A stretch of DNA of 64,000 bases from Physcomitrium patens (lineage: Eukaryota > Streptophyta > Bryopsida > Funariales > Funariaceae), in contig NC_037262.1 of the NCBI RefSeq assembly GCF_000002425.4, positions 10,763,243 to 10,827,242 of the forward strand, read 5' to 3'. Positions 4,507 through 61,058 of the stretch are shown piece after piece. The position numbers and the translations under genes are program-made. How positions within the stretch are numbered: position 1 is the stretch's first letter; the number at the start of each line of letters is the position of its first letter. The notes below the pieces were generated by a model. It ran no database searches. It saw only the letters and a list, made by a program, of their open reading frames with translations, and was not told where the DNA came from.

Positions 4507-5490
4507 CTCACTGTTCAATGCAGTGGGTCTTCGGAATCTCACTCATCCTGCACTAGTCTGCAGGTGGTGGTGTTGTTGCTTCGGACTGGTTTTACATTCC
4601 CTCCGACACTTTGCTGGCGGTCGCTCCGTGACGTGAGGATCCTTCGGGGTGCGAAGGACAGGTCGTGGGGATGCGGATTTGAGCGGATGAGGGAGGGAGG
4701 GAATTGTGTAGGTATATATTGAAACCCTCGTTTTTATTTTTCTTTTCGCGAAGGTGGAGCGGTGCGGCAGGGAACGGTTGTGGATTGCTAGGGACGACTT
4801 GCAGTGGTGGGCTGGGAAGACGTTGGGATTGATTCGTGACGTCGTTTGGGGTTGAGTTTGATCAGAGATTTGCAATGGTGATGGACAAAGCGGCTTTCAG
4901 GTACTTTTAACCAGCTGTTTTTGTTTTTGCCGGGGAACTCGGGATCTGAAATGAATGGATGGGTCGAGGTCATAGTCGTCACCTTTCTACGCTAGGACGG
5001 TGATCTCACGCGACACCAAGATGGTGTTGTGACGTGCGTAGTTCCGTGCACTCTCAGATCGTGCCATAGACCTTCAAATCAACTGCCTTACTCACTGCAT
5101 GGATTTGTAGCCGTACCAGTACTACCGGCTTGTGTCGAGAACGTAGTATCAGGAACTTAACACCGAGGGTGACGTACTGTGGATCAATCTACAGTTTGTA
5201 CGCTTGAATCTGAGCGTTGTGTCCGTCCCACGCATCAAATTTTCAAAAGTCTTGGTTTGAAGTTTCAGGTCAAAGAGTCGACCTTGGTGAGCGCGGTGCA
5301 AGCACTGTCGCTCCTTGAGCACTCCACTGCACAGGAATGTCGAAACAGTTGCGTCAGAGTAGGGCACTGAAACGTGACTACGGAGCACGCGTCTTTTCTA
5401 ATTGGGTTCAGTGCCAGGCTGCAGGCATCGAACGATCTGGTGCAGGTGTTTAGTATTAGCTTGCGTCGGTTGATTCCAGAATCGCACATC

Positions 5491-33570: not shown

Positions 33571-36211
33571 ATGTATCTCTTCTTAGGATTCATTTGTAAA
33601 TGGATAGCGTGGGTGTGTGGTGGATTCCGAGGTGATGGAGAACAACATCCCAATCAAGCTCATAGCAGTCTCTACACCGACCATGGCGACTGCCCCCGCA
33701 CACCTGAAGATGCGGAGAGTGATGACGTCCACAATCTCGGTAGCCCTGCTGTTCACCTTCATCGCGTCCTACAACAGACCAAGTATGACATTTTCATAAA
33801 CCACCGGGGTCCTGACACAAAGCTGACGTTTGTCACCCACCTCCAAGAGGGGCTAAAGGAGAAGCAGTACACTCCGTTTGTGGATAAGTCACTGGGAGAG
33901 GGAAAACAAGTCTTCGAGGAGATCGAAGCAGCCATTCGAGACACACGGGTTCACTTGGCCATATTCTCTCCTGGGTACGCTGAGTCTAAATACTGCCTCG
34001 ATGAACTGGTTTCTATGCTAGAATGTAGACGAAAGAGTCCCAATGGCGCTGTCACCTTGGTGCCTGTCTTTTACGACGTGAAGCCTCAAGCACTTCGCAG
34101 GCCCGATTTACCTGGAAGTCCTTTCTGGCACGCGTTCCAGCAGAAAAAACTCAGATATTCTGATCAGCGAATCTCAGCGTGGAAGAAAGCTCTACATGAT
34201 GCAGCGGATATCAAAGGATTTGAGTTCAAAATCGGCGAGTATGTCCCCGAAACGCACATACAAAACTCTGAGTTGTTTGTAATTGAGTTTGTTTTGTAAC
34301 ACTCTGCTTTTGACAAATTCGACTGAGCTCTACATACTTGTTGAAGGTATCAAAACTTCACAAACCGCTAGCAGAGTCGCCAGTGGTTTGAATGGGCATT
34401 TTGCCTCCTAAGTTAACATTGTCGGTACACATGCTGTACTGTTGTCCACCTCCGTCTCCCAGTGTGTAGTTGCGAGGTTTACCAGGCTGCTCTTTAATTT
34501 TAGCTCCTGCTAGACCAATGGAGGTCGCAGAGAACATTCACATATGCAAAAATAGGGGGCTGTTTGGTTCCCTTCTCCCTCTTCTACCCCATATTTTATA
34601 GGGTGAGGTTTACAATAGTGCAGTATAGTGAATGATGTCTGATATATCCACCTTACATGTTTTTTCCTAAAGCTTCATAACACCATACACCTTGAAGTCT
34701 GGGATTTTCACATTGAATTGAAGCATGAAACAGTACAAATCCGTTGTCATCACTAGTTTATAGTGCTTCAAGTGCTTAATAGGTGATGCTAATTCTTGTC
34801 CTTGTACAAGCTTCTATCAACTTCTAAGCTGGCAGGCCTCACAATGTATGTGGCAAGTTGAGTCCAGCTTCGCTTCTAATGCAGGCAGTAAGAGTGCTTT
34901 TGAAAGGGTCACTAGTGGTTTTTGTTTGGGAGATTGGACTCTGATCAGTTTATCGATTCCAGAAAAAGATTGAACAGGGTTATTATTGGAAACCGATTGA
35001 TGTGTACCGCGTGTGTATGTGGGCAGAGATACGAATGAGCTCAAAAAGAAAATCATCAACCGGGTGCAGGAACTAATTGCACCACGAAGCGGACAAAGCA
35101 GGAAACAGTCGGTCCCGAGCCCAAATGTTGGAGGCGAGGTGCTACTGAAAGAAACACTCAGACGGTTGGAAGAAATGGGGGACAACGTGGGAATACTAGG
35201 CATATGTGGCATGGGAGGCATTGGCAAAACAACATTGGCCCAGGAAGTCTACAACCACTACTCCACAGGTGGAAAATTCCTGTACCAAACCTTTCTGAAG
35301 ATTGGAGACATCAAGGACACGAGCCACTTACGAAAACAGGCACTCCGCGACCTCCTCAACAAAAAAGAGAAGAACTTAGATGAAAGATACGTGAACCACT
35401 TCGAGGGCCTCGCTGGAGTGAAAGTGTTGGTTGTCTTAGACGACATATCCAACGTCGAACACTTCAAGGAACTTGTTCCCAACATGAAGAAGCTGGGCGT
35501 GGGAAGCCGAATAATACTAACTTCACGTGAGAGGGATACGATGAGAGCCATCATGAGCGAAGCACCGTCTCGATTTGGTTCCTACTTGCATGAAATGAAG
35601 CCGTTGGAAGCTACTGATTCGTTTAATCTTTTTTGGTTCCACGCTTTCCATGACAGAGAACTTTCAAAGGCCGAGGACGAAATGTTTCGCCCTCTCGCAC
35701 TAATGGTGGTTAATAATTTGTGTGGAGGTCTTCCCTTGGCATTGAAGGTTATCGGACAACATTTGTATGGAAAGCCGCAGGAAGTGTGGAGAGAAGCAAC
35801 CATGTCTCTAAAGGATAGACCTGATATCATAAATGTCCTTAGCATCAGTTACAAGGGTCTAAAGGAACAAAACAAGATGATGTTCTTAGATGTCTCTTGC
35901 CAAATGGTTGGTTTGCTGGAGGAGGATGCCATCGACATCTGGAAATCTTGTGGGTCTTGCAAGTCCCGTTACTGCATGACTTCTAAAATGGTCCATGATT
36001 CCTTGCAAATTCTGAAAGACAAGTCCCTTGTGGAAGTAGACAAAGATAGAAGAATGACCATGCATGACCTCCTTCGTGAGATGGGCAAAAAGATGGACGA
36101 GGTGGACAAGATTGGTAGTTTGAAGAAAGAAGGACATTGGTGCCACCTATGGGATCCTCTTCTCGTTAAATATTACCTCACGGATGACGAGGTTTGTGCA
36201 TTTTGAACCAG

Positions 36212-36275
<64 letters not shown>

Positions 36276-38585
36276 TGTTATTGAAATTATGAACAAAAGA
36301 ATTTATCAAATTTATGAGTTGAGTTTGTAATGCTCAGTATTGATTTAATTTATAGAAGTTGAATCTCTACATGTGATTTCTACCACAACTGAAATGATAT
36401 ACGTATGTTTAGCTTTTTCTCTTAGCTCTGCATGTCTTTAAACATTGTTTCACAGAAGACAAACGTTAATACTTAATGTTGGTCATGGTAGGGGTCAAAG
36501 GAAGTAAGAGGATTGTCACTGGTTGGGGCGAAGCAAACAGATTTTGCTGGATTGGAGTTTAAAATGATGTCTGAGATCCACTTGATGCAACTAGATGGAG
36601 CTCGAATTGAGGGGGATTTCTCCCTACTATCCAAGAAGATACGGTGGCTGCAGTGGAGATCCTCGTTTCTCAGAGAGCTGCCTCCTAGATTGCACATGCA
36701 GGTTTTGGTAATCCTGGATCTCTCAAATAGTTACAGCTTAGCTCGACTTTGGTCAGACGATGATGCACAGGTATCTAAACAGAGGATTAGTAAGTATGCT
36801 GTATTTGGTTTTAATTCAATCCTTTGGATTAAAAATGCATGTTATTGCCTGATCATTATCATTATATATGTAGCTTAGGGCCGGCTCTCAATATAATTTA
36901 CTAGTGATATGTATATGTATATATATATATATATATATATGTTTTTTGATCTTGTCGTGCGTTTTTTGAATGTGTCGTGACTGTCTCAATCAGGCCGTGC
37001 CCAGTTTACTGAGAGTGTTACTCCTTCAGAACTGCACAGCATTGGAAGAGCTACCAGAGACCATCAAACTACTGACCATGCTTAGAATACTGAACGTTCA
37101 TGGGTGCAAAAGACTGAAACTGTTACCAGGCTGTCTGGGCGACCTACAAGGACTTCAAGAACTTAATTTGAATGAGTGCGAGAATCTGGAAAGGCTGCCC
37201 GAGGGCATGGTCAAGCTATCAAACCTCAAGGCATTGTCATTGGACGGCTGCAGTAAAATTGCGACCCTATTCTCAACCGAAGACGGAGAGCTGGGAGCAA
37301 ATCTTATCAAATTTTCTGCTTTATGTGCTTCCAGCCTCACCAAACTATCGGGACCAAGCATACATTTGCACCTTGAGAAGGCCTCACCCGCTGGTTAAAA
37401 GTCTGAAAGGTGGAGACAAAGTGTGTGTGTTTGCTAGATCTGTGTACAAAGAATGGAGGATCACAGTCATGAAGGGGAGCATCTGCGTTGCATATAACCG
37501 GCCCGACCAGGGATTGAGGTCGGATGTTCTCGACGGTTTAGTTTTGAAAGATGGTGTGAGTGACACTCGGCATACGTTTCGAGCTGAGCCGTTTCCACTT
37601 GTCCTTCAGGTTGCCATTTTACCCATGCTAATCTCAATCTTTGATGAAAGCGGTGTTCGAATTGGTCAGGACATCAAACGCGTTGTTGCCCGCCCTTCTC
37701 ATGATAAAAGTGATGCCAAAGCTATCCGCTTCCGAATGGTAAGTGTGCTCGACGTGTTATCACTCACTGTCTTGGTTTATAGTGCTGGTTTTATACAATA
37801 TATATGACCCCTAAATGAATGAGAGGCAGTTAATATCAGAGTCAAATGTATGAAGTAATCAAAATATAGTTTTCCAGTCTGAAATGACTTTACACTACCT
37901 TGGATGATGGGGTAAGTGATATGGTTCATAATTGCTACCTACGTGGTCTCAAGGTTCGAGTTATTGTTGCTGTGCCATCCTTCATCCTCTTGCCCTTGAT
38001 AGGAGCTTGCACTTAGTAAGTACCCCAGAAAATAGACTAATATGAAAGGTAGGCTTAGAATATTATGCTGAGGGCATGGTCTGTTTGGTTATTCAGTTCC
38101 TCAAAAATAACTGGACTAGTTTGTAGTAATGTGCTTAGGCATGGTCTGATTATCCATTCACCGCAGCTTGCTATGCAGGTCTTGTGTTTCAACTTTGAAT
38201 TTATTGCACCCGGTGAGTCTTTGAGCTTTTAATAATTGGAATGGAATGTAATGTGCAGGTGCATTCTCGTTTCCTCCGACGATGTGATATATGCGAAACG
38301 CTCATCACAGGTCAACGTGGTTGGCATTGCAACGTGTGTAATGAGTTTGACATGTGTGAAACTTGCTTCAAGGAATCGGAGACTGAGAATTGGGAGCCTC
38401 CTCCACCCCATCGGTCGGGCCATCCCATGTCAGTCTTTCAGGCACCCAACCCAGCTGAATCTGAACCAATTTTGATGCCGAATGAACAGGGTGTATACCC
38501 GTCCAATTGGGGGATCAATTGGGGGTATGTGGTGTACGATTATCCAACTATGCGGTGGTGTGAAACTTTTGACTTCATTCGTTGA
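33571..38585 (+). CDS. TIR-NB-ARC-LRR immune receptor with C-terminal ZZ zinc finger
   Basis: Intracellular NLR-type receptor. The model joins six exons in phase: 33571-34238, 35027-36191, 36492-36770, 36994-37252, 37335-37738, 38259-38585; 1033 residues. TIR, 71 to about 220: KYDIFINHRG, and SPGYAESKYCLDEL, whose Glu145 matches the NADase glutamate. NB-ARC: P-loop GMGGIGKTT (284-292), kinase-2 VLVVLDDIS, RNBS-B GSRIILTSRE, GLPL-type CGGLPLALK, and MHD at 568-570. A short LRR block follows (exons 3-4; four or so repeats such as LRILNVHGCKRLKLLP). Residues 791-925 form a domain I do not recognise. Residues 934-980 form a ZZ zinc finger: C934, C937, C949, C952, C958, C961, H976, H980. The start is uncertain: the first 70 residues are unlike TIR leaders and the true start may be in another upstream exon. 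The 82-base intron 4 is inferred; if retained, the product stops at 37398 after the LRRs. Confidence 0.8.
36216..36274. repeat. compound (AT)n(GT)n microsatellite in TNL intron
   Basis: An AT tract followed by about 12 GT units. It lies inside the second intron of the TNL gene; a further (AT)n tract at 36911-36940 lies in the next intron. Confidence 0.95.
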
Positions 38586-40614: not shown

Positions 40615-41979
40615 TCACAAAAAGGAAGAACCTGCATGAACGTTGTGAAGCAGGTTATGAGCAATCGAGTCACGAGCCTGTAGGGCTGTGATAGGAAAGT
40701 TGATGTTCTCCGGCAACATCTCATCATCAACAACCTCGAAGTGAAGCTCGGGGTCAAACATTTCGTTGTGCATCTCGCAGATATTGTGCAGCACACAGCA
40801 TGCACCCAAGACAGCAGGCAGCTCTTGCAACTTCACCTCGGTTCTCCGTTGCAAAAACTTCCAACGTCCTTTCAGACGGCTGAAAGCATTTCGGGCAATC
40901 TGTAGTACCTCCACTACCTTTTCGTTGAATGCATGTTGCGCCCAAGTTAAGTTGTGTTGGACATACGGCACCAACAGCCAATCCAGCAACGGATACCCAG
41001 GCCCTCCAAGTACCCACATTCCACGCAGGTCTTCACTCATTCCACGCCTAAACAAATTCGATTTTTCAAACACACGTTCGTCGGACATGGACCCTGGCCA
41101 CCCGATGCACACATCTGTGAATGAACCGCGTGCATCCACCATTCCTTGCAAAGTGATGGAGTACGACGTTTTCTGATTGTGCTCAGTATGCCGCTTATTG
41201 AAATAAGCAGCCACATTGATCTTGGGAGCTATAATAGGAATATGCGTCGTGTAGAGGGCCCCAACCACATTCCGCATCCCAGACATAGCCTCAAATTCCC
41301 GCGTCACATGTTGCAGACGCTCTGCTGACGGCCATTGCACATACTTAGGAAGCAGCACGTCATTGATTGCTGCGCAGACCTCTAACACCATCTTGTGACA
41401 TGTTGATATTCCAAGTCCAAAGCGCTTTGAAACAAGTCGCAAGGGTTCTCCTGTGGCCAACCGCCAGATGCACACTGCTACTCTCTGCTCCACAGGTATG
41501 GCTGCCCTGAGCATAGTGTTCTCCTTCGCCACCGCTCCTGCGAGCTGTTCACAGATGAGATTGAACGTAGCGCGACACATCCGAAACGATCGATGGAACT
41601 CCTCGTCTGGAAACCCTGGGTGATTGCACTTTGCCCACCATGCTTGCGACCTATTTTTCACCCATAATCGACGATGCACGCTTTGTTGCGTTGATACTGC
41701 AGCTCCCAACGCAGCTGCTGCTACGTGAGCACGACGCAACCGACAACTTTCAAGGACATCGAGATCCGCATATAGAGCTTGCAACTGACAGTAATAATTC
41801 TGCAACCATGTGCGACGACGAGCATGCTGGTGTTGCCATTGTAGATATGCGAGTGTCTGTTGCCGATCTTCCCACTGCTGCTGCTTTTCCTCCTCCTCGT
41901 CCAACAGTAGGAGCAATAACAGCTGCCACTTCCTGTTCCTGTTCCTGGTAATGCGACCGTCAGCACCAGGCGCCCTCAT
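40615..41979 (-). CDS. Harbinger transposase-derived, ALP1-like protein, catalytic residues lost
   Basis: An intronless 454-residue gene of the HARBI1/ALP1 family. Residues 1-80 are a low-complexity, Gln- and Trp-rich N-terminus with no match I recognise. Residues 104-150 carry the family signature (RRLWVKNRSQAWW, then FPDEEFHRSFRMCRATFNLI), followed by the helix-turn-helix-like RLATGEPLRLVSKRFGLG (173-190). The nuclease domain spans about 240-400. The usual DGTHI aspartate is replaced by Tyr243 (ALYTTHIPI), the GDxGYP aspartate by Gly326 (LGGPGYP), and the ERAFGRLK glutamate aligns with Arg363 (ARNAFSRLK). The surrounding fold residues are well kept: WPGSMSDERVF and CCVLHNICE. An intact frame with a dead active site indicates domestication. 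Arabidopsis ALP1, of this family, joins Polycomb repressive complex 2; a similar role here is only a possibility. Confidence 0.88.
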   Translation of the reverse strand: MRAPGADGRITRNRNRKWQLLLLLLLDEEEEKQQQWEDRQQTLAYLQWQHQHARRRTWLQNYYCQLQALYADLDVLESCRLRRAHVAAAALGAAVSTQQSVHRRLWVKNRSQAWWAKCNHPGFPDEEFHRSFRMCRATFNLICEQLAGAVAKENTMLRAAIPVEQRVAVCIWRLATGEPLRLVSKRFGLGISTCHKMVLEVCAAINDVLLPKYVQWPSAERLQHVTREFEAMSGMRNVVGALYTTHIPIIAPKINVAAYFNKRHTEHNQKTSYSITLQGMVDARGSFTDVCIGWPGSMSDERVFEKSNLFRRGMSEDLRGMWVLGGPGYPLLDWLLVPYVQHNLTWAQHAFNEKVVEVLQIARNAFSRLKGRWKFLQRRTEVKLQELPAVLGACCVLHNICEMHNEMFDPELHFEVVDDEMLPENINFPITALQARDSIAHNLLHNVHAGSSFL

Positions 41980-42860
41980 CGTCGCTCATGCAATGCTCGC
42001 CTTCACAATTTCATCCTCATCATCCCCTTTCTCGAGTAAAATCCATGCCACTGTAAAAACGCAACTCTAAATATAGGGCAAATGTCAGCACTTGAAACAC
42101 AGATACTAAACCTAACTGTTTGAGACTCTGCTCATACTGGAATCATGAAATGTCAATACAGGAGCAAGTCCGAGTGTATCCGTATACAGTGAGATGCAAG
42201 TCTCGTATCAGTACTCAAAACTAGCTAATGTAAAAAGTTTTCTCTCACGGTTATTCTGAACTTTGACCAGACTTAAGTGTCTTCCATGTCATTTCTAACA
42301 CATAACTTGGCGGAATGCAGACTACCAAGAAGAGCTGACCTTGAATGCTAACATTGAAAAAATTAGGTCAGAGTTGTATTCTCAACGTTGTCAAATCCCC
42401 TCCAAAAGTTTCAGCGACCAGCAACGAGCCAGTACATAAAATTGAAATCCCCGGAAGCAGAAATTTGTCATAAATCGCGATACTCTACCCTCTGCTGGCA
42501 CCAAAAGAAGCTCATACTACAGCCTAACAATAAACATTTACTTCAAAAAAAAAAATGAAAATAATATTAAAGTAAAACAAAATTGAAAGAAGCGGACAAG
42601 CTGCCCGTTTTCGCAAGGCAGCCCTGCAGGGAGGGAGTAAAAACAAAAAAATAAAAACAGCCGTCCCTAATCGAGTGAACCGCCCAAATCAAAACACCAA
42701 CACACAATGCATTGATTCAATACTCCTCGGAAGAGTAATCCCACCCTAACATTCGAAAACATTCCGCCCTTCACCTCGACTCCAGTCTCCGTCGCCACAA
42801 ATTTCCTCAGTAAATGCACATGCACAAACACCACGTGCAAATCTTTCCCCCAACGATTCC
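41980..42860. other. Upstream region of the ALP1-like gene
   Basis: Moderate GC, no coding signal. Probably the promoter and leader of the minus-strand ALP1-like gene. Confidence 0.5.
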
Positions 42861-57139: not shown

Positions 57140-58581
57140 GCTTGTAGGGAGGGTCAAGTGGGGGATGCAAGTGGGCTGGGTTCCGCATTCTATTCCACAA
57201 TTAGGGTTTCACACTGCCCCCACACCCCCGTGAGAATAATCACAATCCCCCCTCTGAACTCTTTGGGTTTTGTTATATACATAAAATTTATTCTCAAGTA
57301 ATGCTGGAATCCTGCTCCACACACACGAGTACAGTCAAAAGCAATGCTGGAATTGTGGTTACAATTCTCACGGATCCAACGGGATGTAATAGCAGCCTTA
57401 CATAATGTATGTAGATTGTAATAGGCTCTTGGTTACACAAGGTAATTAAAAGGAATTCTACAGTACCACAAATCTATTCGATAATACACAGAAAGTGCAT
57501 CGGATTGAGAAGTAAAAGTAGATACTTCACATTGTACTCTTTACTCCGCCCCCTTGCGTATTAGGTGTTAAGTTGTGTGTTGTAACTCTTTTACTTCATC
57601 CATGCATCAGGTAAACCCTATTTTGTGTATATATTTATATGTATATATTCATAGATTGCATAAATTTTGTGTGAAAAATGGTGAAGACGTGGATGTTTTT
57701 ATTCAAACAGAAATTGCGTGATAAAGCCTTAAACCTGCTGCAAAAGGTATGATCAGTAAAGAGTGTTGGAGTTTCATTCTGACCAACAGTTGAGAAGAAA
57801 AATACAAAAAGTAAAAAAATGTAGTAGACTCGGCAAACAAAAAACGGAGTTGAATAAGCAGCATAACGTAGCATGTGGAGAAAGTGAAATACTTTTGCAT
57901 GGTGGATGATGCCTCGGGCGATGGCTGCGGGTGTGACGACGCGGAGAACGCAGACAGTGGGCGCCGTCGTCGCGTTGTCATAGATTGATGGTTACAGGAA
58001 AACACAGGGGAAGTTAGAGATAGAGTGAGCACAGTGACAACAAGAGTGGGAGGAACCGCGGCCAACACGGAATCGCTCGGAGCTGCAGGTCCGACCGCCA
58101 GTTGCAGATGGGGTACAATCGGTGTGGAAACTAAAGCATGTAGCTGCAAGGACATGCATTATTTATAGAGAGAGAAAGATAGAGAGAGATTCACATGTAT
58201 TAAAAAAGTCACGTGTTGTCACAGAAGATGAGGTCGAGTGATTGTTACACACTTTTTGTCAGTGGTAAAATGGTAAAAGGACGAATCTTCCCGGGTAGTG
58301 GGTGAGTGTGCGTTGAAAACAGTCGCCGAGTCGCAGACCACAGCTTGGTTCTGTGCTTCGACTTTTCTTGGTATTGAGCCTACTCCCAATTTGGAGGTGT
58401 TGTGGTTTTCTGGGTTGAGTCGGAGGAGTGGTTGCTAGAGAATGTGTCAGTGAGAATGACGACATGAGCTCCGAGCTTAGACGTGGGTTGAGGCCGAAGA
58501 GAAGGAGTGGGTGAGCGAGAGAGAGAGATAGGGAGTGGCGTTGAGAGGGCGTGTTTGAGACTGGGGTTTGTTGTTGTGGCG

Positions 58582-61058
58582 ATGGGGAGCATGCGCGCGG
58601 TTGCAAGGAGGCATGAGTTTGCGAATGTTGCAGTAGCAGTGCTGCTCTGCGCCTTGCTTGTGCACGGTGCCGGTGCCGACAGTTCCCCTTGGTATGTGGA
58701 TGCGGCCTTGAGGGCTGATGCGGACGCGCTGCTGCAGTTCAAGGAGGGGTTGCAGGATCCGAACGGCGTGTTGCGAAGCTGGAATTATCTGCAGACTCCG
58801 TGTTCATGGCTCGGGGTGGAGTGTGCCCGCGTGGGGACCGACCACGTTACCCGCGTGGTAGGGTTGGAGCTCAAGGAGGCCAAGCTGAAGGGCCACATCT
58901 CGTTCAAGCTTGGGGATCTTTCCGAGCTCGAAGTGTTGAATTTGATGGGCAACGAGCTCGAAGGCTTCATTCCGGTTGAGCTGGGCAATTGCAGGCGACT
59001 CATGTTGTTGGATCTGCGAAAGAATGACTTGGTTGGGTCCCTCCCTCCCGGTATCCTCACCCTCTTGCCCAATTTGTTGGAGTTGTCTGTCTCCGGAAAC
59101 AAGCTTTCCGGTCGTCTCGACCGCTTGATCGAGTTGCATCTGGCTCCCGAGAACGCTCCATGTGATCATTTGAAGCTCTTGGACTTGTCGCACAATCGTC
59201 TCACGGGCAGCTTGCCGAGGCAGTTGCACGAGTGCTCGCAACTTGTGGAAGTTTATCTTGGTTCCAACCTTCTTGTCGGTGGCATTCCGGCTGAGTATGG
59301 GAGACTTGTCAATCTTGAAGTTCTGGAGGTCCAGAACAATATTTTGGATAGACAACTTCCTCAAGAGCTGAAGAGCTGCACGAAGCTGCGGACTTTCAAT
59401 ATGGCCGACAATTTCATAGTGGGTGAAATTCCGTCGTCTTTCGCGGAGCTTCGAGAGCTCCGAGAATTTGATGTAGCGAGAAATAGGTTGTCTGGGCACA
59501 TCCCCCAAGGCAGGTGGGTGCGTGAAGCTCCCAAGTTTCGTGGGAACGACGGCTTGTGCGGTTCACCTTTACTGACTTGCAAAGATGAAGACGTTCTTCA
59601 GGAGTTCAAATCCCACGTGAACAGTCTTTTTTTCAAGGGGGGCGAATTTGTCCGAGGCAGTGTCAGCAAGTATTTTGAAAACACCTCTCAGCCACGAACG
59701 CAAGTTGGGGTGCGAAGGTCCTTGAAAGCTGCATCAAAGAACCGCCGCAGCAAAGGCGCCCGATGGGGGCTTGGAATTGCGGCAGGATTAGTCACTGGGG
59801 CGGTAGCCGCTGTCCTTCTCGCACTCATAATACGCGTTGTGGTGGCGTTTGCTTCGGGCACTGAGAATCTCAAGAAGCCCATAATCTTCGATAAGAAAAT
59901 CACGCCCCACATGCTTGCTTTCCTCGACAAGGAGGACGCATTAGCTGGCTGCCGTCTCCTTGGTGCAGGAGGAAACGGGAAGGTATACCAAGTTCCTCTC
60001 CAGGATGATCTCGTCGTGGCAATAAAATGTGTCCGCATCGCCTCGGACGAAGCTGAAGAGGGTTCAGACTCCAGCCATGACGCGAAGCAGATTCGTGCAG
60101 AGCTCGAAACCCTAGGCTTCATCCGCCACCGAAATTTGGTACGATTGTTGGCATACATCTTCAAGGAGGACTCTCACTTGTTGGTGTACGAGTACATGCC
60201 AGGGGGAAGTCTGCAAGATGCGCTGCACCGGGTAGCTACTGGTAACTTGACACTGTCATGGCCTGAACGCCATCGCATCTTATGCGGTGTTGCTCAAGGG
60301 CTTGCGTATCTCCACAATGAGTCTCTCGGCAGCTCCATCGTGCACCGTGACTTGAAACCCGCCAATATCTTGCTGGACGAAGGATACGAAGCAAAGCTCG
60401 GTGACTTCGGCCTGGCAGCTGTCGTCCCCCTGAAGGCCACTCACGCCACCACTGAAGTGCTTGCTGGCACCATCGGATTCATTGCACCAGAATATCATCA
60501 AACGATGAGGTAAGTTGAGATCAATCATACGCTGCACATTTCCTTGTTCTTGTCACTGCTTGCAACCTTCAATTCCAGCAGAGTTGAGATGCATGCGCAC
60601 ATAGTCTGACGCGGTGTACCATGTCTGAATCCAGGTACTCGCAAAAGAGTGACGTGTTTAGCTTCGGTGTCGTGATTGCCCAACTCGTCACAGCTCGTAA
60701 CCCAACCGACCAATTCGTCGTGGAGAATGGCGGTAGTATTGGCCAATGGCTCCACAAGTGTCTCCAATCGAGCAATGGAGTCGAAGCAATCGATCCCGCC
60801 TTGCAGGCGTCAGGGTACGAGACCGAGATTCTCTTGGCTATGAAGATTGCCGTCTTCTGCACACACGTTGACCCTCAGCAACGCCCCAAGAGCATTGAAG
60901 TGCTGAAAATGCTCTTGCAGATCCGAAATCCCGACCCTGTTCCCGCAGAACGTAACTTAAGTCCCGACATTGTCGAGAGTGACGTTATGACCCTCCCATC
61001 TAGTGATTCTCTAAGATTTCCAGTATCCGGAGCAACGTCCCTGACTAGCAGCTATTAA
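58582..61058 (+). CDS. SOBIR1-like LRR receptor kinase
   Basis: Plasma-membrane receptor kinase resembling SOBIR1/EVERSHED, the adaptor kinase that pairs with LRR receptor-like proteins in immunity. Two exons, 58582-60509 and 60635-61058, joined in phase; 783 residues, longer than Arabidopsis SOBIR1 (641) because of a larger ectodomain. Signal peptide about 1-34; LRRNT with a PCSWLGVEC motif; roughly eight LRRs to about residue 315; a spacer; then a transmembrane helix at 395-423 containing GIAAGLVTG, the GxxxGxxxG pattern known from SOBIR1. The FDKKITPHMLAFLDKEDALAGC leader (436-457) is nearly diagnostic for SOBIR1. Kinase: P-loop GAGGNGKV, Lys482, HRD at 588-590, DFG at 608-610, APE at 635-637, so it looks active. 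The start at 58582 puts the signal peptide first; the frame is open back to 58507. SOBIR1-like is confident; one-to-one orthology is not shown. Confidence 0.9.

What the first reader, a model, noticed from the sequence alone, without database searches (positions are those of the whole stretch)
33571..38585. TNL immune receptor carrying a C-terminal ZZ zinc finger
Six exons join in phase into TIR, NB-ARC, short LRR, an unknown domain and a complete C6H2 ZZ finger (Cys934 to His980). ZZ fingers are known from NBR1/p62, HAC, ADA2 and PRT1, not as a standard part of TNLs. Additional NLR domains often act as integrated decoys that imitate an effector target; ZZ domains bind N-terminal degrons or histone tails, so a decoy for autophagy, N-degron or chromatin factors is possible. 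The P-loop, MHD and TIR glutamate are all intact, so the receptor looks functional.
Basis: partly seen in the sequence, partly recalled or inferred. Interest (0 to 1): 0.8.

Follow-up and report, generated by a model that had tools for sequence, protein, structure and literature searches.

The report
Known moss TNL with ZZ finger
This is a moss immune-receptor gene with an unusual zinc finger at its end, apparently the one listed in a 2014 paper; in this copy a large deletion has removed part of the receptor, so it is uncertain whether the finger is still attached to the protein.

Summary
The domains are real: TIR, NB-ARC with winged helix, LRR and ZZ lie in order on one strand, and the six-exon chain is open for 1033 aa. 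The gene matches a published one, Physcomitrella patens TNL3 (Pp1s145_93V6.1), listed in 2014 as a TIR-NBS-LRR with C-terminal zinc finger over 5,015 bp, exactly the finding's span. A 2019 paper also names ZZ among P. patens NLR-like genes.

New here: (1) Two paralogs in the same genome keep TIR to ZZ in order; one is a pseudogene without exon 5. (2) The ZZ is closest to that of BIG (plant UBR4), keeps all eight zinc ligands and both Asp that grip the amino end in PRT1. (3) The 'short LRR' reflects a deletion of 1,254 bp relative to the fuller paralog. (4) Intron 4, the only bridge from LRR to ZZ, is doubtful: it is LRR coding in both paralogs, which lack its GT, and its donor ranks 152nd of 329. 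The other introns are conserved.

A BIG-like integrated domain is the best family-level reading; this copy may make only an 838-aa TNL without ZZ. No transcript data were available.

The parts
33571..34238 (+). Exon 1: hydrophobic N-terminus and TIR domain, Glu145 kept; donor phase 2, conserved in 3 of 3 copies
35027..36191 (+). Exon 2: NB-ARC and winged helix, P-loop to MHD intact
   Evidence: splice sites conserved in 3 of 3 copies
36492..36770 (+). Exon 3: start of LRR region
   Evidence: no Pfam hit of its own
36994..37252 (+). Exon 4: LRRs; the LRR frame runs on without a stop to 37395 (TAA 37396-37398) if intron 4 is not spliced
37253..37334 (+). Proposed intron 4 (82 bp): LRR coding sequence in both paralogs; GT donor only in the window copy; doubtful
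37346..37347 (+). Junction of a deletion: 1,254 bp present in the other C10 copy are missing here (placement good to about 3 bp)
37335..37738 (+). Exon 5: domain of unknown fold; 5' part 78% identical in the other C10 copy, dN/dS 0.37 (0.18-0.76); 3' part not alignable
   Evidence: no PDB match at E up to 10
37739..38258 (+). Intron 5, phase 0; donor conserved in the 2 of 3 copies that have that stretch, acceptor in 3 of 3
38259..38585 (+). Exon 6: ZZ zinc finger (C934-H980), a tail of about 50 aa, stop

Best explanation
The locus is, by span and architecture, Physcomitrella patens TNL3, one of a three-copy family of TIR-NB-ARC-LRR receptor genes that end in a domain of unknown fold and a BIG/UBR4-like ZZ finger. 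Most likely the family works as integrated-domain NLRs: the ZZ unit, copied from or resembling the ZZ of BIG, is the part met by a pathogen effector or by an exposed protein N-terminus; this releases the NB-ARC switch, and the TIR makes the NAD-derived signal. Shown: domain order, motif integrity, ZZ similarity, retained zinc ligands and Asp pair, paralogs, conserved exon 5-to-ZZ junction. Inferred: bait function, ligand, signalling. In this copy a deletion removed most of the LRR region found in the fuller paralog; the ZZ is attached only if an 82-bp, poorly supported intron is spliced.
For: Pfam domains in order; open 1033-aa chain; the three copies are a group at 73-74% NB-ARC identity, next relative 38%; ZZ and tail present in 3 of 3 copies; all 8 zinc ligands in 3 of 3; exon 5-to-ZZ splice at the same place and phase in the other C10 copy. 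Best PDB match of the ZZ is BIG, E 1.6e-11, best non-BIG 2.5e-4; the best matches in this genome outside the family are the moss BIG pair, 45-46% identity, E about 1e-9, one of which was checked as BIG (E 4.7e-196). Asp935 and Asp956 sit, by my alignment and count, where PRT1 has Asp312 and Asp336, which bind the substrate's amino group (PMC11668491 passages; PRT1 sequence; alignment). PMC11218826 (passages) reports expanded TIR-NLRs in mosses, expanded NLR-IDs in Ceratodon and Sphagnum, and zinc fingers among nonflowering IDs.
Against: No ligand, effector or transcript evidence. The ZZ exon shows no clear purifying selection (dN/dS 1.02, range 0.45-2.59, 103 codons; 0.64 and 1.81 for the other two pairs); that fits a fast-evolving bait or simple relaxation. 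The ZZ tree does not resolve its origin (1 of 7 inner branches starred). Of the aromatic-pocket residues named for PRT1, Tyr317 faces Leu940 and Ile333 falls in a three-residue stretch that the TNL ZZ lacks (alignment). The LRR-to-exon 5 bridge is unproven also in the other C10 copy, where LRR and exon 5 lie in different frames and 532 possible in-phase introns gave no clear winner.
Confidence: 0.5

Rival explanations
1. This copy makes a truncated TNL of 838 aa (TIR, NB-ARC, short LRR) ending at the stop 37396-37398; exon 5 and the ZZ exon lie downstream of the stop and are no longer translated. The single-gene model of 2014, whose exons I did not see, would then have bridged the frames with an artificial intron.
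For: Intron 4 sequence is LRR coding in 2 of 2 paralogs and 37253-37396 is coding-like in the LRR frame here; weak donor (152 of 329), GT in 1 of 3 copies; a 1,254-bp deletion has its junction 12 bp downstream. A P. patens TNL with an early stop, TNL4, is on record.
Against: Exons 5 and 6 still lack stops, and intron 5 has the best donor in the gene. The acceptor of intron 4 ranks 21 of 321, and intron 4 has the best sum of 85 in-phase candidates. New short introns can arise after deletions (general knowledge).
Confidence: 0.42
2. The ZZ is not a bait but a working part of the receptor: a contact surface for oligomerisation, localisation or a partner.
For: ZZ plus its tail is kept in all 3 copies, also as an open frame in the pseudogene; the tail after the ZZ is similar in the three as well.
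Against: Nothing points to a partner; the low conservation of the ZZ exon does not suggest a fixed interface.
Confidence: 0.2
3. Exon 5 and the ZZ exon form a separate downstream gene with its own promoter.
For: LRR and exon 5 lie in different frames in both copies that have exon 5; the exon 5 frame alone is open for 211 aa here and 265 aa in the other C10 copy.
Against: Within the 17.4-kb stretches compared, the similarity of the two paralogs starts about 170 bp before the TIR start codon of the C10 copy and ends about 600 bp past its ZZ stop, as for one gene; the exon 5 frame begins inside the LRR exon; the 2014 table has it as one sequence.
Confidence: 0.08

Closest known systems
Physcomitrella patens TNL3, Pp1s145_93V6.1 (PMC3991678, Table 2)
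   Same: Moss TIR-NBS-LRR annotated as one sequence, with C-terminal zinc finger (44 aa, by Pfam); genomic span 564173-569187 is 5,015 bp, the same length as 33571-38585
   Different: No difference found. The parts read give no sequence, so identity rests on span, architecture and genome. The sections read (11 and 14) say nothing of the deletion, the paralogs, the doubtful intron or BIG.
P. patens NLR-like genes with ZZ (PF00569), Andolfo 2019 (PMC7145615)
   Same: Same species, same Pfam family on NLR-like genes (section 17)
   Different: One sentence only; no gene named there
ZZ domain of BIG (plant UBR4), PDB 9lgr, 9lgs, 9qt9
   Same: Best sequence match, E 1.6e-11; same ligand pattern, same spacing to the His pair apart from a 2-residue insert
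   Different: BIG is a protein of about 5,000 aa; exon 5 matched no PDB sequence, full-length BIG included
NLRs with integrated domains (PMC4759884, PMC5067614)
   Same: Extra domain fused to an NLR; mosses included (passages)
   Different: The term searches in these two texts showed no ZZ; tables and supplements were not read through

Membership tests
TNL (TIR-NB-ARC-LRR receptor) | TIR, NB-ARC and LRR in order on one strand | tested here: met
TNL (TIR-NB-ARC-LRR receptor) | Phase-2 intron between TIR and NBS (feature given in PMC3352924) | tested here: met
   intron 1 is phase 2; passage
TNL (TIR-NB-ARC-LRR receptor) | P-loop, GLPL, MHD and TIR catalytic Glu intact | tested here: met
   motif names recalled
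TNL (TIR-NB-ARC-LRR receptor) | LRR as long as in its fuller paralog | tested here: not met
   1,254 bp missing against the other C10 copy, whose LRR frame is open for 491 codons; not a defining feature of TNLs as such
ZZ zinc finger (PF00569) | Above the curated cut-off, eight zinc ligands | tested here: met
   31.8 bits against 21.4; ligands
NLR with integrated domain | Extra domain in the same transcript as the NLR | tested here: inconclusive
   exon 5-to-ZZ junction conserved; LRR-to-exon 5 junction not
NLR with integrated domain | Extra domain is an effector target or binds an effector | not testable with these tools
   needs effectors and binding or cell-death assays
N-degron-binding ZZ (PRT1, p62) | Asp pair that binds the alpha-amino group | tested here: met
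   Asp935 and Asp956 in register with PRT1 Asp312 and Asp336
N-degron-binding ZZ (PRT1, p62) | Side-chain pocket of PRT1 (Tyr317, Ile333, Phe352) | tested here: inconclusive
   Tyr317 faces Leu940; Ile333 falls in a stretch the TNL ZZ lacks; Phe352 not placed; p62 pocket not examined

The most novel reading that the evidence does not exclude
The ZZ is a decoy of BIG/UBR4, so these moss TNLs guard the N-degron machinery: pathogen proteins that bind or exploit the BIG ZZ, or protein fragments with new N-termini made by effector proteases, are caught by the TNL ZZ and trigger TIR signalling. It would be an NLR that watches an N-recognin.
Probability: 0.15. Interest if true: 0.7.

Novelty: already known. 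Interest (0 to 1): 0.36.

Why it matters
The gene and its zinc finger appear to have been in print since 2014, so the architecture is not a discovery. What is added is a sharper and testable lead: the finger looks like that of BIG, the plant UBR4, which enhances Arg/N-degron degradation (PMC11371152, title and passages). If it is a bait, mosses would have an immune receptor that watches protein-degradation machinery. The locus is also a caution: a gene model that bridges a deletion with a doubtful intron may turn a truncated receptor into an apparent full fusion.

Tried and rejected
ZZ from p62, CBP/p300 or ADA2: rejected as nearest source, since in the PDB search they lie about 23 bits or more below the short BIG entries. 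In this genome the HAC-like loci (label by eye) match at E 0.004 only. NBR1 was met in neither search, so it was not compared. A tree of 10 ZZ sequences gave no resolved placement. Exon 5 from BIG: rejected, no PDB match at E up to 10 although full-length BIG is in that set. Fold of exon 5: AlphaFold2 without an alignment gave mean pLDDT 36, not used. Exon 5 relatives: no match to 6 peptide patterns in viral contigs; in this genome only the window and the other C10 copy. Its likeness to fungal C-terminal domains is my recollection only and was not tested. Synonymous and non-synonymous counts between the two paralogs did not show which frame is coding between LRR and exon 5. In one search the row for 'intron4' was taken in a wrong frame and is void; one search replaces it. 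A DNA search for the origin of the unalignable 3' part of exon 5 did not complete.

Of the 15 PF00569 places: L002 was checked as BIG and L006 as PRT1; L001 as BIG, L008 and L011-L013 as PRT1-like, L004-L005 as HAC and L003 as ADA2 are labels by eye. L007 was not read properly (one search read it on the wrong strand) and its ADA2 label in note 4 is untested.
Full report
What is there. Pfam on the separate frames gives TIR (5.1e-27), NB-ARC (2.3e-29), a ROQ1-type winged helix (2.6e-7), LRR (LRR_14 2.1e-9, just under its cut-off; LRR_13 2.5e-7, above its own) and ZZ (1.3e-7, 31.8 bits against a cut-off of 21.4). The P-loop, GLPL, MHD and TIR Glu145 are intact. The intron between TIR and NB-ARC is in phase 2, as reported for TNL genes (PMC3352924, passages). 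Exons 5 and 6 are not chance frames: equally long open frames appeared in 0.3% and 1.3% of 5,000 simulated sequences each, and the claimed frame scored best of six for both, though for exon 6 only narrowly; 0 and 6 of 500 shuffles reached the observed score.

It appears to be a known gene. The window lies in a 470-Mb genome of 101 contigs, which fits Physcomitrella patens (recalled). PMC3991678 (abstract passage, sections 11 and 14 read) lists four P. patens TIR-NLs; TNL3, Pp1s145_93V6.1, at scaffold 145:564173-569187, carries a C-terminal 'zinc finger (44)' and is annotated as a single sequence. Its span is 5,015 bp, the same as 33571-38585. The other C10 copy covers about 6.26 kb from start codon to stop, so it is not TNL3. 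The C22 copy, about 4.95 kb from its first TIR match to its ZZ stop, has no start codon in the aligned place and two stops in the TIR, so it is an unlikely candidate but not excluded by span alone. The authors already remarked that no R genes with these C-terminal domains had been reported. PMC7145615 (section 17 read) names PF00569 among P. patens NLR-like genes. A search of the library for the gene identifier found only the 2014 paper. The identification rests on span, architecture and genome, not on a sequence match.

A three-copy family. Searching the whole genome with the ZZ exon gave 9 matches at E up to 0.1; besides the window itself the strongest were C22:2970523-2970834 (74%) and C10:14885540-14885848 (68%). 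Searching with exon 5 gave two places, the window and C10:14886541-14886822 (77%), and a longer version of the domain gave the same two. Searching with NB-ARC gave 54 matches at E up to 1e-10, of 106 candidates scored; the same two loci are 73-74% identical and the next is 38%. The copy at C10:14.885-14.892 Mb, on the minus strand, has open TIR, NB-ARC, LRR, exon 5 and ZZ pieces. The C22 copy has two stops in the TIR, a break in the NB-ARC and has lost exon 5, so it is a pseudogene, although its ZZ frame is open. Within the 17.4-kb stretches compared, the similarity of these two copies begins about 170 bp before the C10 copy's start codon and ends about 600 bp past its ZZ stop, as expected if TIR to ZZ is one gene.

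The short LRR is best read as a deletion. In both paralogs the LRR continues past the place where the window gene stops; the LRR frame of the other C10 copy is open for 491 codons and scores LRR_14 at 2.1e-28. Against that copy the window lacks 1,254 bp between 37346 and 37347. The difference, a multiple of three, leaves LRR and exon 5 in different frames, as they are in the other C10 copy too.

Intron 4 is the weak link. That stretch is in-frame LRR coding in both paralogs: SKIATLFSTEDGELGANLIKFSALCASSLTK here, RKIATLFPTDDGELGANLIKFSARRASSLTK and SQIATLCSTDDGELGANLIKFSALGASSLTK there. In the window itself 37253-37396 scores best in the LRR frame. Its GT exists in 1 of 3 copies, and its donor ranks 152 of 329 GTs in the gene, while donors 1, 2, 3 and 5 rank 33, 3, 8 and 1. 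In its favour, its acceptor ranks 21 of 321, and of 85 in-phase candidates it has the best sum. If it is not used, the protein ends after 838 aa with no ZZ. By contrast introns 1, 2 and 3 have both sites in 3 of 3 copies, and intron 5 has its donor in the 2 copies that keep that stretch and its acceptor in 3 of 3, so exon 5 and the ZZ do belong together. How the other C10 copy joins LRR to exon 5 is unresolved: 532 in-phase candidates, none decisive.

What the ZZ resembles. The best PDB match is the ZZ of BIG (1.6e-11 and 2.0e-11 for the short entries, 3.1e-9 for full-length BIG); next come p300 (2.5e-4), HERC2 (3.9e-4), a fusion with the ZZ-type protein P35G2.11c (4.4e-4), CBP (5.4e-4), ADA2 (0.0089) and p62 (0.023 at best); PRT1 is not among the 39 matches at E up to 1. 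Within this genome the nearest ZZ outside the family are the two BIG-like loci, at 45-46% and E about 1e-9; one was checked as BIG at E 4.7e-196. All eight ligands are kept in 3 of 3 copies. PRT1 binds the substrate's amino group with Asp312 and Asp336 (PMC11668491 passages); by my count both are in register with Asp935 and Asp956. That review also says it remains to be determined whether the BIG ZZ binds N-degrons (section 9, part 1), so a binding role here is inference. The BIG likeness is of sequence only; the tree of ten ZZ sequences is unresolved.

Selection. Nei-Gojobori estimates between window and the other C10 copy: TIR 1.03 (0.59-1.97), NB-ARC 0.69 (0.51-0.94), exon 3 0.69 (0.28-2.25), exon 4 0.34 (0.16-0.68), exon 5 first part 0.37 (0.18-0.76), ZZ exon 1.02 (0.45-2.59), ZZ core alone 1.45 (0.47-8.03). 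ZZ exon against the C22 copy gives 0.64 (0.32-1.45), between the two paralogs 1.81 (0.78-8.11). Exons 4 and 5 were under constraint for at least part of their history; for the ZZ exon constraint, relaxation and fast change cannot be told apart.

Verdict. A real and apparently published moss TNL with a ZZ finger. An integrated BIG-like domain is the best working idea for the family (0.5); a truncated TNL without ZZ at this copy is nearly as likely (0.42; the two overlap, since one concerns the family and the other this copy). No transcript data and no other moss genome were available to me.

Noticed in passing
L014 (G000:C13:13873000-13878000), L067: A second kind of ZZ unit: an ORF with two ZZ matches and a tail related to the TNL3 tail (E 1.8e-5), lying upstream of NLR-like remnants (an ARC2-like piece without P-loop, by eye, and an LRR frame) and downstream of an FtsH-like gene (Peptidase_M41) on the same strand. 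Not shown to be one gene.
   Followed up: partly
L069 (G000:C2:818500-828400), hit at 4540-5031: A related ZZ-plus-tail frame (38% identity, one stop inside) with no match to the TNL3 protein in the 9.9 kb around it at E up to 0.01.
   Followed up: partly
window 37608-37738: The 3' part of exon 5 does not align with the other C10 copy (about 126 against 193 bp) although both flanks do; origin unknown.
   Followed up: no
window 40615-41985, minus strand: 456-codon open frame with a DDE_Tnp_4 domain (1.1e-33), a transposase of Harbinger type (name recalled), about 2 kb downstream of the TNL.
   Followed up: no
window 58492-61055: LRR receptor-like kinase in two open frames (Pkinase 6e-34 and LRRNT_2 3.6e-14 in the first, kinase end in the second).
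   Followed up: no
L001, L002 (C11 and C7): Two BIG/UBR4-like loci in this genome with the same ZZ core; only L002 was checked against BIG.
   Followed up: partly
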